From assembly GCF_005221385.1 (NCBI RefSeq), contig NZ_CP039904.1:1895501-1959500 (forward strand): a stretch of 64,000 bases of DNA. Reading direction: 5' to 3'. The translations under genes were made by a program, and so were the position numbers. The notes beneath the pieces were generated by a model that was not told the DNA's origin, searched no databases, and saw only the letters and a program-made list of their open reading frames with translations. This DNA is from Agrobacterium tumefaciens (GTDB taxonomy: Bacteria > Pseudomonadota > Alphaproteobacteria > Rhizobiales > Rhizobiaceae). Every line of letters starts with the position of its first letter. Within the stretch, counting starts at the first letter, position 1. Shown here piece by piece: positions 10,243 through 45,676 of this stretch.

Positions 10243-12645
10243 ATGCTTACCCCCCGCGAACGCATCGAACGGCAGATGGCCGATCCATGGCTCGTTCGCC
10301 TGCATCGCAAGCTGAGCGCGCTGAAATCCACCGCCACCATCATGCATACCGGCGCGCATCCGGATGATGAGCAGAACGGCCTTCTCGCCTATTTCCGCAT
10401 GGAACTGGGCATGCGGATCATCATTGCCTGTTCGACACGCGGCGAGGGCGGGCAGAACGCGCTGGGGCCGGAAAGACTGGGCGCGCTTGGTGTCATTCGC
10501 TCGCGGGAACTCGAAGAGGCCGCCCGTGTCATCGATGCCGACATAAGCTGGCTTGGCCACGGACCGGCGGATATGATCCATGATTTCGGTTTCTCCAAGG
10601 ATGGCGACCAGACCTTCGGCCGCTGGGGGCAGCAGCGCATCGTCGAAAGATTGGTGCGGGCCTATCGCAAGGAGCGTCCCGATATCGTCATCCCGACATT
10701 TCTCGATGTGCCGGGCCAGCACGGGCACCACCGCGCCATGACACGGGCTGCAAGAAGCGCGATTGCGCTGGCGGCCGATCCTTCCGCTTACCCTGAACAT
10801 TTCTCCGAGGGGCTGAAGCCCTGGAAGGTGGCGAAGTTCTACCTTCCGGCATGGTCGGGCGGTGGTGATACCTATGATGACGAAGTGCCGCCGCCGGAAA
10901 CCACCCTGACGATCAATGCGGTCGGCAAGGAGCCGGCGACCGGTGCGGAATATGACCGTATCGGCGAATGGTCACGTTATTACCATGCCTCGCAGGGAAT
11001 GGGGCACTGGCCAAAGCGTGCACAGGAACTCTGGCCGCTTCATCTCGAACTCTCTGACGCCGCCAATCGAGAAGAAGGATCGATCCTCGACAACCTGCCA
11101 TCGACGCTTGCCGCCCTTGCCGGCGTTGCGGGGCTGGATGCCGAATCCCAGAAAGCACTGGTCGAGGCCGAAAAGGCCATCAACCGGGCGATTGCGGCTT
11201 TTCCCGACACGCGGGAAATCACCAGATCGCTACTTGATGCGGCGGCCCTTCTGCAAAAGGTGGATGAAGCCGCGGCAAGTGAATTCACGGACTTGCACGG
11301 CCACAGGATCACGCGCAAACGGGCTGAAGTCGATGCTGCCATTCTGACCGCGCTTAATCTTTTCGAGCGGGCCTATGCCGAGCCGGCAGAGATCGTTCCG
11401 GGTGGGGAAACGTCGCTTTCTGTGGAGCTTTCCGACCGGGCGGCGGAATTCGATATCAAGGTAACACCGGTTCTTCCGAGTGGAGTGTCGTCGTCCATCA
11501 GGTCGTTGGGACAGACAGTTGTCTTTTCCCTTGCCGCCGATCAAACCACGGCTGTCTCAGGTCTCTATCAGCCGGACTGGAAGGCGGCTGGCGGCAACGG
11601 CCATGGTTTCGTACGTGTGGCTGCAACGCTTGAGGGGCGGGAGGTTTCCGCCTTCTTTGATCTGGAAGAACCGTTTTTTGTTACGCCGGCGCAGTCGCTC
11701 ACGCTTTCGCCGGATGCTTTTCTCGTTCCGCTGGGGCAAGGCCGGGACACACATGTGTTTCAGGCCCTTGTGAAAGGCGCGGATACACCGATTTCATTCA
11801 GGGGCGCTGGCGGCTGGAATGTGCAAAAATCGGGAGACGACTGGATTGCCGAACGCACGGGCGAGGGCGCTGCGGGGCTTTCACAGCTTGAGGCGATCTC
11901 CGGTTCGCAGCCGGCTTTCCAGGTCACCCCTATCGCCTATCCGCATATTGGCAGGGCGCGGTTTCTGGCCCCGTCCGTCATGAAAATTCTGTCGCTGGAC
12001 CTCAAACTGCCCAAGGGCGCGCGGATCGGTTATGTCGGCGGCGGTGCGGACCGGGTCGGTTCATGGCTGTCGCGTATAGGTCTCGATGTCACCGAACTTG
12101 ACGCGCAGGCGCTCGGCGGCGATCTCTCGTCTTTCACGACAATTGTCGTCGGCATATTCGCCTTCGGCATCCGCAGGGATCTCACTGCTGCGACGGAGAA
12201 GCTCCATCGCTTTGTCGAAAACGGCGGCCATCTCATCACGCTCTATCACCGGCCGACCGACGGATGGAACCCGGAGACAACGCCGGTCCGGCGACTTGAA
12301 ATCGGCAAGCCGTCCCTGCGCTGGCGGGTAACGGACCCGAAGGCGGAGGTGACGGTGCTGTTGCCCGATCATCCGCTGCTTGCCGGCCCCAATGTCATCG
12401 ATGCCGCCGACTGGGCGGGCTGGGACAAGGAGCGCGGGCTTTATTTCGCCTCGCGCTGGGATGACGTGTACGAGCCATTGCTCGCCATGCACGATGTCGA
12501 TGAACAGCCTCTCAAGGGCGCGCTGGTCTCGGGCGTCATCGGCAAGGGCCGTCACACCCATACCAGCCTCGTGCTGCATCACCAGATGGACAAGCTTGTG
12601 CCGGGGGCGTTCCGCCTCATGGCAAACCTTGTGCAACCGGCGTGA
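10243..12645 (+). CDS. Large multidomain PIG-L-family deacetylase
   Basis: This protein of about 800 residues has an N-terminal PIG-L (LmbE-like) metal-dependent N-deacetylase domain with the zinc motif HTGAHPDDE (about residues 33-41) and the downstream HGHHRAM histidines. Family members remove acetyl groups from N-acetylglucosamine conjugates. The middle is a long linker/beta-rich region. Around residues 580-700 an alpha/beta segment (IGYVGGGADRVGSWL, then FVENGGHLITLYHRP) resembles a glutamine-amidotransferase-like fold. Typical PIG-L enzymes are 220-300 residues, so the fusion is notable. GGAGGA precedes the ATG. No signal peptide is seen. Its position after the ROK gene links it to the adjacent sugar import operon. 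Confidence 0.82.
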   Translation: MLTPRERIERQMADPWLVRLHRKLSALKSTATIMHTGAHPDDEQNGLLAYFRMELGMRIIIACSTRGEGGQNALGPERLGALGVIRSRELEEAARVIDADISWLGHGPADMIHDFGFSKDGDQTFGRWGQQRIVERLVRAYRKERPDIVIPTFLDVPGQHGHHRAMTRAARSAIALAADPSAYPEHFSEGLKPWKVAKFYLPAWSGGGDTYDDEVPPPETTLTINAVGKEPATGAEYDRIGEWSRYYHASQGMGHWPKRAQELWPLHLELSDAANREEGSILDNLPSTLAALAGVAGLDAESQKALVEAEKAINRAIAAFPDTREITRSLLDAAALLQKVDEAAASEFTDLHGHRITRKRAEVDAAILTALNLFERAYAEPAEIVPGGETSLSVELSDRAAEFDIKVTPVLPSGVSSSIRSLGQTVVFSLAADQTTAVSGLYQPDWKAAGGNGHGFVRVAATLEGREVSAFFDLEEPFFVTPAQSLTLSPDAFLVPLGQGRDTHVFQALVKGADTPISFRGAGGWNVQKSGDDWIAERTGEGAAGLSQLEAISGSQPAFQVTPIAYPHIGRARFLAPSVMKILSLDLKLPKGARIGYVGGGADRVGSWLSRIGLDVTELDAQALGGDLSSFTTIVVGIFAFGIRRDLTAATEKLHRFVENGGHLITLYHRPTDGWNPETTPVRRLEIGKPSLRWRVTDPKAEVTVLLPDHPLLAGPNVIDAADWAGWDKERGLYFASRWDDVYEPLLAMHDVDEQPLKGALVSGVIGKGRHTHTSLVLHHQMDKLVPGAFRLMANLVQPA

Positions 12646-29718: not shown

Positions 29719-29855
29719 GGTGAGGGAAACCCGCCGTTTTTCGAACGCTTCCGGACAAGTTGAATTAATTGTGTTCGGTAACGGTATGTTCGCCTTCCGG
29801 GAATATGCCTATGAGGACGGCTGGGTAAAAGCGGGCTTTGTTCAGGAGTAGCATA

Positions 29856-30458
29856 ATGAATATTGCAGCACGTCTGTCTTTGACGGCCATGATCGCACTG
29901 GTCGCGACATCATCTTTCGCCTCTGAGGATATGACTTCGGAGACGAGCGAGGCGATATTCGGTTTCGCTGGCGCCATGACGAAAGAAGACATGCTGAAAA
30001 GTGCTGCGCTCATTCCAGTGGAATATGAAAGAAACGCCACTATCGGCGGCGGCTACCAGTTTTATCCCTACCGTATCGGCAATGTAAAACTGGGCGGCGA
30101 GATTGGCATAGCCGCCAGGTTTGGCAAAGGCTTCACCGGCGAAGTCTGGGCCGGCCCGGTCGCACGTTACGAGCAGATCAGGCTTGGGGAGCGGCTTTTC
30201 ATCACGCCAAGCTTTACCGCCGGTCTCAGCCTGGTCACGGATGCGCAGCCGGGCCGTGAGCGTGAGCAGGAAATCAAGGACGACGGCAATGCCAATGTCC
30301 TGTTTTATCTGGGGCCGGAAATCAATGTCTCCTTCAGCGAGGATTCGTCGACGGAATTCTTCTGGCGCCTTCACCACCGTTCCGGCGGTGGCAAAACTTT
30401 GGGCAATATGAAGGGCGCTACAAACGCCAATGTATTCGGTGTTCGCTACAAGTTTTGA
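29856..30458 (+). CDS. Outer-membrane beta-barrel protein, possibly PagL-like lipid A deacylase
   Basis: This 200-residue protein has a Sec signal (LTAMIALVATSSFA). It shows alternating aromatic/hydrophobic beta strands and ends in an aromatic residue (GVRYKF), typical of outer-membrane barrels. Near the C-terminus H174-R-S176 resembles the His-x-Ser pair of PagL-type lipid A 3-O-deacylases, which also lies in the last strands. The match is motif-level only, and the catalytic Glu is not evident. The ATG at 29856 follows AGGAG, making this start better than the ATG 18 bases upstream. It appears monocistronic. Confidence 0.55.
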   Translation: MNIAARLSLTAMIALVATSSFASEDMTSETSEAIFGFAGAMTKEDMLKSAALIPVEYERNATIGGGYQFYPYRIGNVKLGGEIGIAARFGKGFTGEVWAGPVARYEQIRLGERLFITPSFTAGLSLVTDAQPGREREQEIKDDGNANVLFYLGPEINVSFSEDSSTEFFWRLHHRSGGGKTLGNMKGATNANVFGVRYKF

Positions 30459-30676: not shown

Positions 30677-30823
30677 ATGAACGTAGCACGCAGCTTTAAC
30701 AATTGGCGCAAATATCGTCAGACCATCAACGAACTGGGCCGCATGAGCACCCGTGAACTGCACGATCTCGGTCTCGACCGCAGCCAGATCACCAGCGTTG
30801 CCCGCGCCGCAATCGGCAAATAA
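30677..30823 (+). CDS. DUF1127 small protein, 48 aa
   Basis: This is a 48-residue basic protein, MNVARSFNNWRKYRQ...ARAAIGK, with the DUF1127 (YjiS-like) pattern of an Arg-rich N-terminus, then L-x-x-M-S-x-R-E-L-x-D-L-G-L-x-R-S-x-I. Frame, conserved spacing and the AAGAAAGG ribosome site support it, although it is short. In Agrobacterium, DUF1127 proteins have been linked to phosphate and carbon metabolism and RNA-related regulation. A strong terminator lies 31 bases after the stop, so it forms a one-gene transcript. Confidence 0.88.
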   Translation: MNVARSFNNWRKYRQTINELGRMSTRELHDLGLDRSQITSVARAAIGK

Positions 30824-30854: not shown

Positions 30855-30881
30855 AAACGCCCGCTTCGCGGGCGTTTTTGT
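30855..30881 (+). terminator. Rho-independent terminator of the DUF1127 gene
   Basis: AAACGCCCGC and GCGGGCGTTT form a stem closed by a TTC loop and followed by a T-rich tail. It ends the DUF1127 transcript. Confidence 0.9.
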
Positions 30882-31104
30882 TTTGGCGCATCATTCAATT
30901 TCTTCGTCACCTTTTGACGCTTGTAACGAAGTTTTGCCCGGCTGCGTGAAATAGGCAGTCTGCGGTTTTTGCAGACGATGCGACAAGACGTGAAGCTGTG
31001 GCATCCATATCCCATAGCGTGAAATTCGCCATGCACCAAATGCATATCTGTACTGCAAGCTTATGCCTGTGAAATGCGCAGGAAAATGCTATCTTCAAAT
31101 CATC

Positions 31105-31263
31105 GAAACGGATGTACCTCCTCCCACATCCTTTTGGTAATGCGGGCGATCCTACTCCTCCTCCCAAGGATTGCCCCAGGGACAGCGGTTTCCTCCTCCC
31201 ATATCGCTGTTCATCTTTTCAGAAGCCTGCCGCACCTCCTCCCGCGGCAGGCTTTTCTGTTTT
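31105..31263 (+). ncRNA. Four-hairpin small RNA with CCTCCTCCC loops (cuckoo/alpha-r14-type)
   Basis: Four consecutive hairpins each place the nonamer CCTCCTCCC in the loop. Stem 1 is 31110-31115 with 31126-31131 (GGATGT/ACATCC). Stem 2 is 31144-31153 with 31167-31176 (ten pairs, one G-U). Stem 3 is 31182-31189 with 31203-31210. Stem 4 is 31225-31233 with 31244-31252 (GCCTGCCGC/GCGGCAGGC), followed by TTTTCTGTTTT as terminator. The loop sequence is complementary to Shine-Dalgarno sequences. Rhizobial small RNAs of the alpha-r14 or cuckoo type carry this motif in loops. The 5' end is approximate and I do not see a convincing promoter. The surrounding 30882-31303 holds no gene. Confidence 0.88.
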
Positions 31264-31303: not shown

Positions 31304-31747
31304 TCAGTCGAAAGCCATCATGCCGATGGGCGTCACCGCATGGGTGCCGGCCCGTTTGGCAAGCGCGTAGGACAGGCATTGTCCCACTGCGTCCTGCGGC
31401 ACGGGCTTGGCAATTACTCCCGCGCCAATGCCCAGATTGACGACCACTTCCGGGTTTGCCGTCATGAAAATCACCACCACGCCATGATCCTGGGAAAGAC
31501 GGCGGCCGATCTCCGGGCCAGTCTGGCCATCGGCAAGGTTGACGTCGACGAAGGCGATGTCGGCGCGGCTGCCGAGCGCAACGGCCTCATCCAGCCGGTT
31601 GGCGATGCCGATGACATCTGCCTCTTCATCCGCCTGGAGAATGGAATCCTCTATGTCCATGGCGATGAGGAACTCATCCTCGACGATCAGCACCCGCGGC
31701 TGTTCCATGCGGAAACCCGGTTCGCTTTGCAAGACGTCTGCCAACAT
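31304..31747 (-). CDS. Single-domain response regulator
   Basis: This 147-residue stand-alone receiver domain has acidic residues E23-D24-E25 in LIVEDEF. The phospho-acceptor is D68 in IAFVDVNL, with the switch Thr at T96 (IFMTAN) and the conserved Lys at K114 (IAKPV). There is no output domain. The start at 31747 is selected because GGAGG lies seven bases upstream; an internal ATG (31708) begins exactly at the receiver fold and is the alternative. No kinase is adjacent. It is divergent from the short ftsZ gene, with about 370 bases between them. Confidence 0.87.
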   Translation of the reverse strand: MLADVLQSEPGFRMEQPRVLIVEDEFLIAMDIEDSILQADEEADVIGIANRLDEAVALGSRADIAFVDVNLADGQTGPEIGRRLSQDHGVVVIFMTANPEVVVNLGIGAGVIAKPVPQDAVGQCLSYALAKRAGTHAVTPIGMMAFD

Positions 31748-32121: not shown

Positions 32122-33084
32122 ATGACCCAGTCTCCGCGCGCTTCGATTGCCCGCAACACTCCCAATATCGCTGTCGTCGGCGTTGGTGGCGGTGGCGGAA
32201 ATGCGATCAACAACATGATCTCCGAGGGCATTAGCGGGGTCGATTTCATCGCCGCCAATACGGACGCGCAGGCGCTGAAGAAAACCAATGCACCGCGGAT
32301 GGTGCAGCTCAGTTCCGAGCTGACCGGTGGACTTGGTGCAGGGGCCGATCCGGAGGTCGGTCGGCAGGCGGCGATCGATTCACTCGATGAGATCATGGAT
32401 CACTTGAGCGGTTACGACATGTGTTTCATCACCGCCGGCATGGGCGGCGGCACCGGCACGGGTGCGGCCCCGGTAATTGCGGAAGCCTGCCGGGCAAAGA
32501 ACATCCTCACCGTTGGCGTTGTTACGCTTCCCTTCAGCTTTGAAGGTGCGCGCCGCATGCGAGCTGCCGAATACGGCTTTGCCAACCTGCTCAATACCGC
32601 CGATACCGTCATCGTAATTCCCAACCAGAACCTGTTGCGCATCGCCGACGCTGGCACCACCTTCGAGAATGCGCTGAAGACGGCCGACAAGGTCCTGTCG
32701 CTCGGCGTGCGTTGCGTCACCGATCTCATTCTGCGCGAGGGTCTCGTCAATCTCGATTTCGCCGATGTGCGCTACGTCATGAAAAATGGTGGCCGGGCGC
32801 TTATGGGCACGGCGCAGGCCAAGGGTGAAAAGCGCGCCTCGGAAGCGGCGGCCGCCGCCATCGCCAACCCGCTGCTCGGCGAACCGTCGCTGAAAGAAGC
32901 GCGCGGTGCGCTTGTGGCCATCTCCGGTGGCAACGATCTGACGCTTTATGAGATCGATGAGGCGATGACGCTGGTGCGCGAGGCTGTCAGCGAGGAGACG
33001 GATGTGGTGATGGGCGCTTCTTTCGATCCGACGCTGGACGGGGCTTTCAAGATCTCTGTCGTGGCCACCGGCCTGCGGAACTGA
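32122..33084 (+). CDS. ftsZ1: FtsZ paralogue lacking the C-terminal tail
   Basis: This 320-residue tubulin-like GTPase has the signature GGGTGTG at residues 108-114 and an intact T7 loop N210-L-D212-F-A-D215, so GTP binding and hydrolysis look preserved. The sequence ends right after the polymerisation domain (FKISVVATGLRN). It therefore lacks the linker and conserved C-terminal peptide that bind FtsA and other partners; full-length alphaproteobacterial FtsZ exceeds 500 residues. Agrobacterium is known to carry a main FtsZ plus such an accessory copy. The ribosome site is weak. No other division genes are nearby. The symbol follows that reported accessory FtsZ and is probable. Confidence 0.88.
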   Translation: MTQSPRASIARNTPNIAVVGVGGGGGNAINNMISEGISGVDFIAANTDAQALKKTNAPRMVQLSSELTGGLGAGADPEVGRQAAIDSLDEIMDHLSGYDMCFITAGMGGGTGTGAAPVIAEACRAKNILTVGVVTLPFSFEGARRMRAAEYGFANLLNTADTVIVIPNQNLLRIADAGTTFENALKTADKVLSLGVRCVTDLILREGLVNLDFADVRYVMKNGGRALMGTAQAKGEKRASEAAAAAIANPLLGEPSLKEARGALVAISGGNDLTLYEIDEAMTLVREAVSEETDVVMGASFDPTLDGAFKISVVATGLRN

Positions 33085-45355: not shown

Positions 45356-45676
45356 TTATGCGACGCGGCTATAGACCAGATGGTAAAAACGGCCGTCGCA
45401 CATGCTCATCATCTCGTCCGTCAGCACCCGGCCTTCCAGCCGGACGGGGGAAACCAGCGCTTCCTCCACCGCCTCCATCGACGGATAGTCGATTTCCTGC
45501 ACCATGATGATCGCAGCCGCGTCCGGATCGGTGCGCTCGGTGCGCATCACCCGCACGGCCTGCGCATTCGGCATGCGTTTCCAGACGGGCAGCAATTTCT
45601 CCTCGACGATGCGGAAAAACTCCTCCTCCCGGCCGGGGTGAATCCTGCCTTCGAAAATTGCCGAGCGTGTGTACAT
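45356..45676 (-). CDS. Small protein, possible dimeric alpha/beta-barrel
   Basis: This 106-residue protein starts at ATG 45676, four bases after GGGAGGG. Its pattern (beta strand SAIFEGRIHPG, helix EEEFFRIVEEKLLPVWKRM, beta AVRVMRTERTD, beta AIIMVQEIDYP, helix SMEAVEEALVSP, and a final beta strand) fits a ferredoxin-like dimeric barrel of the EthD/ABM kind. No catalytic residue can be assigned. It is divergent from the ABC operon, and both promoters lie in a region with two LacI-type sites. Confidence 0.72.
   Translation of the reverse strand: MYTRSAIFEGRIHPGREEEFFRIVEEKLLPVWKRMPNAQAVRVMRTERTDPDAAAIIMVQEIDYPSMEAVEEALVSPVRLEGRVLTDEMMSMCDGRFYHLVYSRVA

What the first reader, a model, noticed from the sequence alone, without database searches (positions are those of the whole stretch)
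31105..31263. RNA with four tandem hairpins, each showing CCTCCTCCC in its loop
Four independent stems with unrelated sequences all present the same nine-base loop motif (31117-31125, 31157-31165, 31192-31200, 31235-31243), complementary to GGGAGGAGG ribosome-binding sites. The last hairpin doubles as terminator. Similar motifs define rhizobial cuckoo/alpha-r14 RNAs; four copies in one transcript suggests a multi-target translation silencer or protein sponge. Several genes in this window have matching GGAGGA/GGGAGG sites (for example those at 10243, 16768, 31747, 45676, 45971).
Basis: partly seen in the sequence, partly recalled or inferred. Interest (0 to 1): 0.75.

Follow-up and report, generated by a model that had tools for sequence, protein, structure and literature searches.

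The report
Four-hairpin ribosome-site-blocking small RNA
This is very probably a real small RNA of a known soil-bacterial family that carries four copies of a ribosome-like tag to shut down other genes; the bacterial locus is ordinary in kind, but closely related copies also turn up in sequences classed as viruses of related bacteria.

Summary
In detail: four CCTCCTCCC motifs sit in the loops of four hairpins at the coordinates given, far beyond chance. The kind is known: Rfam ar14 (RF02344) matches 31138-31259 above threshold, and four-hairpin versions were published in 2011 (SmelA099). Stems covary across 60 four-hairpin arrays. All 20 sampled loci of the window's ortholog group (19 distinct) keep four hairpins, an upstream DUF1127 gene, and a VtlR/LsrB-type box 74-75 nt before the first motif. 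The locus probably corresponds to VrsA/L4, a VtlR-dependent sRNA detected by Northern blot in Agrobacterium C58, although VrsA's reported length does not fit well. I found no held paper joining VrsA to this family. Best mechanism: a VtlR-activated sRNA whose four redundant anti-Shine-Dalgarno loops block translation of many mRNAs, as shown for its three-hairpin relative NfeR1; here it is inferred. Most novel by-product: 40 viral contigs (14 distinct arrays) carry a three-hairpin version, beside phage replication genes in the three contigs examined. Of the 40, 31 have the exact VtlR box at 74 nt, and some are up to 93% identical to a chromosomal array of a Brucella/Ochrobactrum-like genus.

The parts
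30677..30823 (+). DUF1127 small-protein gene (48 aa), conserved upstream neighbour
   Evidence: Pfam PF06568, E 1.6e-16; a DUF1127-like frame (found by a residue pattern) lies upstream in 20 of 20 sampled orthologous loci, 19 distinct
30855..30877 (+). terminator-like hairpin after the DUF1127 gene, separating it from the RNA
   Evidence: 2 overlapping matches; 0.9 expected from shuffles
31032..31045 (+). LsrB box TGCA-N6-GCAT (exact)
   Evidence: located; consensus from PMC10746234
31042..31054 (+). VtlR/LsrB box GCAT-N3-TG-N3-T (exact), about -61 to -49 of the predicted start
   Evidence: consensus from PMC7486931 and PMC8844928
31089..31095 (+). candidate -10 element CTATCTT; transcription start about 31102-31103 (inferred)
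   Evidence: TATCTT kept in the 5 host rows of alignment A2; not found by the E. coli-type promoter scan (0 found)
31102..31138 (+). hairpin 1, motif 31117-31125 in the loop
31141..31178 (+). hairpin 2, motif 31157-31165 in the loop
31180..31212 (+). hairpin 3, motif 31192-31200 in the loop
31221..31263 (+). hairpin 4 (stem 31221-31256) with motif 31235-31243 in its loop, then a T-rich tail: terminator by form
   Evidence: not listed by the simple terminator scan
31304..31744 (-). convergent response-regulator gene; its C58 counterpart may be atu4670
   Evidence: Pfam PF00072; context PMC7486931; assignment inferred

Best explanation
31102 to about 31263 is a free-standing, VtlR/LsrB-activated small RNA of the cuckoo/alpha-r14 (NfeR1) family in its four-hairpin form, and probably the ortholog of A. 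tumefaciens VrsA (L4). When the LysR regulator is active, RNA polymerase starts near 31103. Each of four stable stems holds the single-stranded tag CCUCCUCCC, a copy of the ribosome's anti-Shine-Dalgarno sequence; the fourth stem ends transcription. Any loop can pair with the GGAGG-type ribosome site of many mRNAs and keep ribosomes off, lowering for instance uptake and nitrogen-metabolism proteins. Shown here: four conserved, covarying hairpins, invariant loops, a conserved operator-like box. Shown in relatives (papers): VtlR/LsrB control and redundant loop-mediated silencing. Inferred: that this very RNA is made, that it is VrsA, its targets, and that four loops act like three.
For: Rfam RF02344 match, 96.2 bits against a cut-off of 58.8; two sister loci of the genome also above it. 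A3: 60 four-hairpin arrays, 55 distinct; 93.4% of cells paired, 30 of 39 pairs with two-sided changes, 0 of 500 shuffles as high on any of 5 measures; slid controls 38-51% paired. 20 of 20 sampled orthologous loci (19 distinct) keep four motifs, a DUF1127 frame upstream and the box at -74/-75. PMC7486931 puts VrsA between two gene 3' ends on the linear chromosome with such a box. Silencing through the loops: PMC10746234, PMC8844928 (passages).
Against: VrsA ran at about 300 nt on the Northern, against about 160 nt predicted. The paper made its vrsA mutant by deleting atu4670; if that is the window's convergent gene, the hairpins end about 40 nt before its stop and an in-frame deletion should have spared them. 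There are no expression data for this genome. Promoter and terminator scans did not list this RNA's own signals (loop too large for the scan, promoter type not covered). The structure tested was taken from the same alignment, and shuffles do not remove relatedness.
Confidence: 0.8

Rival explanations
1. CcsR/CIN1-like: the hairpins are the processed 3' end of the DUF1127 messenger, cut out by RNase E with the DUF1127 protein as RNA-binding partner.
For: A DUF1127 frame ends within 70 nt upstream of 34 of 102 arrays with at least 400 nt of upstream sequence in named records; CcsR/CcaF1 biology in PMC10253847 (passages).
Against: In the window the DUF1127 stop lies 293 nt before the first motif, a terminator-like hairpin intervenes at 30855-30877, and a VtlR box and -10-like element precede the array. 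None of those 34 arrays has the box at -90 to -55.
Confidence: 0.08
2. Sponge or decoy: the four loops titrate a protein (for instance the neighbouring DUF1127 protein) or compete with the ribosome generally rather than silence chosen mRNAs.
For: Many identical loops in one RNA; the DUF1127 protein CcaF1 is tied to CcsR RNAs in Rhodobacter (PMC10253847, passages); the motif copies the 16S tail.
Against: NfeR1 silences named mRNAs by pairing, with mutant and reporter tests (PMC10746234, PMC8844928, passages). I tested nothing about protein binding.
Confidence: 0.08
3. No trans function: a string of hairpins and terminators with C-rich loops.
For: The last hairpin looks like a terminator, and no transcript of this genome was seen.
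Against: The nine-base loops stay on covarying stems in 55 distinct arrays (arrays were chosen by having the motif, so loop invariance itself is not a test); pattern in 39 of 39 genomes against 0 of 39 for its reversal.
Confidence: 0.02

Closest known systems
Rfam RF02344 ar14 / NfeR1 (Smr14C2) of Sinorhizobium
   Same: Loops, stems, terminator-like last hairpin, LysR-regulator box; family score above cut-off
   Different: Four hairpins instead of three; the Rfam model covers only the last three
RFMSmelA099 / cuckoo RNA family
   Same: Four adjacent hairpins, CCUCCUCCC in each loop, variable stems (PMC3927594 section 2.7, read)
   Different: No tested feature differs; the founding cuckoo paper (Reinkensmeier and Giegerich 2015) was not held and not read
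VrsA (L4) of Agrobacterium tumefaciens C58
   Same: Place on the linear chromosome between convergent 3' ends (inferred), exact VtlR box
   Different: Reported size about 300 nt against about 160 nt; the terms hairpin, Shine-Dalgarno, NfeR1 and cuckoo do not occur in the paper
CcsR1-4 / CIN1 locus of Rhodobacter
   Same: aSD-loop RNAs with a DUF1127 gene nearby (PMC10253847 and PMC3927594, passages)
   Different: Here own promoter-like elements and an intervening terminator-like hairpin; not a 3' UTR product by sequence

Membership tests
Rfam ar14 (RF02344) | covariance-model score above gathering | tested here: met
   96.2 against 58.8 bits, 31138-31259
Rfam ar14 (RF02344) | three hairpins, each with CCUCCUCCC | tested here: not met
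   four hairpins; the last three match the model. The wider cuckoo family allows this number
cuckoo / RFMSmelA099 | four adjacent hairpins with CCUCCUCCC in every loop | tested here: met
   definition PMC3927594 section 2.7
cuckoo / RFMSmelA099 | stems vary while pairing is kept | tested here: met
   30 of 39 pairs with two-sided change; within the window's own ortholog group only 4 of 44
cuckoo / RFMSmelA099 | stress-induced, processed transcript | not testable with these tools
   no expression data
NfeR1-type regulation | LsrB/VtlR box upstream of the core promoter | tested here: met
   both published consensus forms exact within 31032-31054; binding itself not tested
NfeR1-type regulation | aSD loops silence target mRNAs | not testable with these tools
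   needs reporter assays
VrsA | intergenic VtlR box between convergent 3' ends on the linear chromosome | tested here: met
VrsA | transcript about 300 nt, overlapping atu4670 | tested here: inconclusive
   predicted about 160 nt, ending before the convergent gene; the scan listed no second terminator downstream
CcsR/CIN1 | co-transcribed with a DUF1127 gene | tested here: not met
   terminator-like hairpin 30855-30877 and own promoter-like elements; by sequence only

The most novel reading that the evidence does not exclude
Temperate phages have captured this regulator. A lineage of phages or prophages related to 16-3-like Rhizobium phages carries its own three-hairpin anti-Shine-Dalgarno RNA beside its DNA helicase and recombination genes, in most cases still with the host's VtlR/LsrB operator. 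The host's own regulator would then switch on a phage RNA that silences host (or phage) translation initiation. The family would be a regulator shared and fought over by bacteria and phages, with the window's RNA as a bacterial member.
Probability: 0.5. Interest if true: 0.68.

Novelty: new member of a known kind. Interest (0 to 1): 0.42.

Why it matters
For the window locus: it gives VrsA, an orphan VtlR-controlled sRNA, a probable structure, family and mode of action, and joins two literatures (LsrB-NfeR1 in Sinorhizobium, VtlR-VrsA in Agrobacterium) under one regulator-RNA pair. It also separates two architectures of the family: operator-type free RNAs and arrays directly behind DUF1127 genes. 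The phage copies, if active, would be a clear case of a phage using a captured bacterial sRNA gene with its bacterial switch.

Tried and rejected
Rejected: chance repeats. Coding origin: single-base insertions and deletions separate the orthologs; the frames listed were not searched against families. Four copies as exceptional (3 motifs 57, 4 motifs 23, 5-14 motifs 27, of 107 clusters kept). Cited ribosome sites as target evidence. Membership in CcsR/CIN1. Of 102 clusters with at least 400 nt upstream, 68 had no DUF1127 frame directly upstream: 33 had the box at -90 to -55, 35 did not. Control stretches of 300 nt held the box once for these 68 and five times for the 34 DUF1127-adjacent ones.

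Led nowhere: the phage version in named phages and plasmids (no match; the window's own RNA in phages: 31 records with short stretches only, at most 14% of the query in the 20 listed); an order-wide DNA search (2 of 397 genomes, partial matches); the syntenic spot of three named 16-3-like phages (no CCTCC[TC] motif in 3 of 3); arrays beside the helicase in the best loci (none, including two with 96-98% identical helicase). A survey of Agrobacterium ncRNAs (PMC3738593) holds none of my six terms. A first phage alignment (A4) used wrong coordinates and was replaced by A5. In A2 the phage rows are misaligned around the -10 region. L256 and L257 had three motifs and were left out of A3.

Full report
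Observation. The four motifs are at the stated coordinates and lie in the loops of four hairpins; folding energy is 7 standard deviations below shuffles. The last hairpin is followed by a T-rich tail; the simple terminator scan did not list it, its loop of 10 bases being larger than that scan allows. Rfam's ar14 model matches the last three hairpins above its cut-off, the only gathering-level Rfam match in the window. The genome holds two further ar14 loci, both three-hairpin (L003, L004).

Conservation. The tandem three-motif pattern occurs in 39 of 39 genomes of the genus, its reversed control in none (the match list was cut, so not every locus was seen). I cut out 34 further loci. All show four motifs, a DUF1127-like frame ending 172-323 nt before motif 1, and a box GCATNNCTGNNNTGC[A/G] at -74/-75. 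Within this group mean identity is 94% and only 4 of 44 pairs change on both sides, so the stronger test uses 60 four-hairpin arrays (39 from this genus, L066 included, and 21 from other records). It gave 93.4% of cells paired and 30 of 39 pairs with two-sided changes; no shuffle of 500 reached any of the five measures, and sliding partners by 1-3 columns dropped pairing to 38-51%. The structure came from RNAalifold on the same alignment plus hairpin 2 placed by me, which favours it over slid versions; hairpin 2 is the weakest (79.6% paired).

Operator and identity. The window holds TGCA-N6-GCAT at 31032-31045 and GCAT-N3-TG-N3-T at 31042-31054. The first is the LsrB motif tested by gel shift and reporter at the NfeR1 promoter (PMC10746234, passages). 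The second is the VtlR/LsrB consensus (PMC7486931: abstract, sections 9, 10 and 12, and passages; PMC8844928, passages). PMC8844928 puts the box at -61 to -49 at abcR1; with a start at 31103 the window's box takes the same place. The own genome has 15 sites of GCATNNNTGNNNTGCA; one lies just ahead of the ar15 (AbcR) pair (L263), a positive control. PMC7486931 reports VrsA/L4, about 300 nt, lost in a vtlR mutant, from the region between the 3' ends of atu4669 and atu4670 on the linear chromosome. Genome G007 has contigs of 2,841,580 and 2,075,577 bases, which I recall as those of C58. Of its 20 box sites three lie outside open frames longer than 122 codons: one identical to the abcR1-type site, the four-hairpin array at 1,831,386, and one at 2,065,364; a further site 12 kb from the array is inside a 342-codon frame. 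Recalled gene numbering puts atu4670 near 1.83 Mb. I conclude that the window's RNA is probably the VrsA ortholog. Against this stand VrsA's length and the paper's use of an atu4670 deletion as its vrsA mutant. The terms NfeR1, Smr14, Shine-Dalgarno, ar14, cuckoo and hairpin do not occur in that paper, nor VrsA in two NfeR1/AbcR papers. CCUCCUCCC occurs in 3 held papers, none of them the VrsA paper; one held paper names both VrsA and VtlR.

Family picture. In named records (120 stretches, scan stopped at its limit) cluster sizes after filtering were 3: 57, 4: 23, 5-14: 27, of 107 kept and 17 dropped. Two architectures separate: of 102 clusters with enough upstream sequence, 34 follow a DUF1127 frame within 70 nt and none of these has the box; 68 do not, and 33 of these have it. 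The window belongs to the second kind, with the DUF1127 gene present but behind a terminator-like hairpin. The largest, 14 motifs, is in a Loktanella assembly (L132).

Known literature. PMC3927594 section 2.7 (read; passages) describes SmelA075 with three and SmelA099 with four hairpins with CCUCCUCCC loops, and proposes one family that blocks ribosome sites. PMC10253847 (passages) gives the CcsR/CcaF1 case and the name CIN1. The founding cuckoo paper was not held; its 2-4 hairpin definition is recalled.

Mechanism. The loops copy the 16S anti-Shine-Dalgarno tail (general knowledge). Over 48 predicted genes of the window, 11 start regions bind the loop at -10 kcal/mol or better, against 0 of 48 coding controls, but this tracks 16S complementarity (r = 0.83) and start codons were chosen by 16S pairing, which inflates both. 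Sequence alone cannot name targets; NfeR1's tested targets (ntrB, SMc03121, SMb20442; PMC10746234) are the guide.

Phage copies. Scanning IMG/VR found 63 contigs with the triple pattern. 40 share one array type (spacings 35-36 and 40, 42 or 45), 14 distinct sequences; the other 23 contigs (25 clusters) are mixed, several being short-period repeats. In A5 all 29 pairs hold in all 14 sequences. Seven have two-sided changes (17 of 500 shuffles reach 7); cells with two-sided change 27 (0 of 500); further pair types 18 (192 of 500, so no support from that measure). The exact box GCAT-N3-TG-N3-T lies at -74 in 31 of 40 contigs, and in 9 of the 14 representatives; the rest lack it by the strict pattern. 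In the three contigs whose genes I tested (L189, L207, L213) the array lies within about 20-165 nt of the 3' end of a phage DNA helicase (phrog_16), among Gam-like (L189), exonuclease (L207, L213) and Cas4-exonuclease (L189, L213) genes. The helicase's closest named relatives are Rhizobium/Sinorhizobium phages including 16-3 (44-56% identity); three checked lack the array at that spot. Helicases 96-98% identical occur in two genomes of genus g158, without an array beside them. Loci of g158 resemble named Brucella/Ochrobactrum records (84-85% over 1.4 and 3.1 kb). That genus also has arrays between an AI-2E transporter and a TonB-dependent receptor gene (G709) or near minC (G545). The receptor protein also matches a PHROG of unknown function (phrog_5687) and the transporter one weakly, so a mobile origin there is not excluded. 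The G709 array is 84-93% identical to phage arrays and the G450 one 76-83% (best alignments listed). I read this as capture from such hosts; the direction is inferred and no transcript is known. Two literature searches aimed at phage-borne members gave no such paper in their listings, within the held library only.

Verdict. Ordinary in kind, well supported by sequence, with a useful probable identification and one surprising by-product.

Noticed in passing
L159, L161, L189, L213 and 36 other viral contigs (L189:5114-5229, L213:7810-7930, L207:5258-5373): Three-hairpin CCUCCUCCC arrays, 31 of 40 with an exact VtlR-type box, in viral contigs; next to the phage DNA helicase in the three contigs examined; up to 93% identical to an array in a Brucella/Ochrobactrum-like genus.
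   Followed up: partly
L132 (MAG Loktanella), L116, L055, L085, L042, L095, L138: Arrays with 10-14 CCTCCTCCC motifs directly after a DUF1127 frame, in Rhodobacterales-type records; the longest seen has 14.
   Followed up: no
L003:2021-2142 and 2157-2379: An Rfam 'RNA thermometer' (RF02762, C1_109596F) begins 15 bases after the end of an ar14 array; an ar35 match follows at 2822-2941. Whether the thermometer is independent of the array was not examined.
   Followed up: no
G656:C3:321631-322032 (L337, L342, L347): Three copies of a three-motif array at a 157-base period; the second and third have the same listed sequence.
   Followed up: no
L344/L348 (G545:C39): Two divergent three-motif arrays under 1 kb apart near minC.
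   Followed up: no
window 45622-45630: A fifth, isolated CCTCCTCCC without array.
   Followed up: no
window 32122-33084: A 320-residue FtsZ paralog (Tubulin/FtsZ plus FtsZ_C) two genes downstream of the RNA.
   Followed up: no
window 29838-30458: A 206-residue frame without Pfam match upstream of the DUF1127 gene; possible counterpart of atu4669.
   Followed up: no
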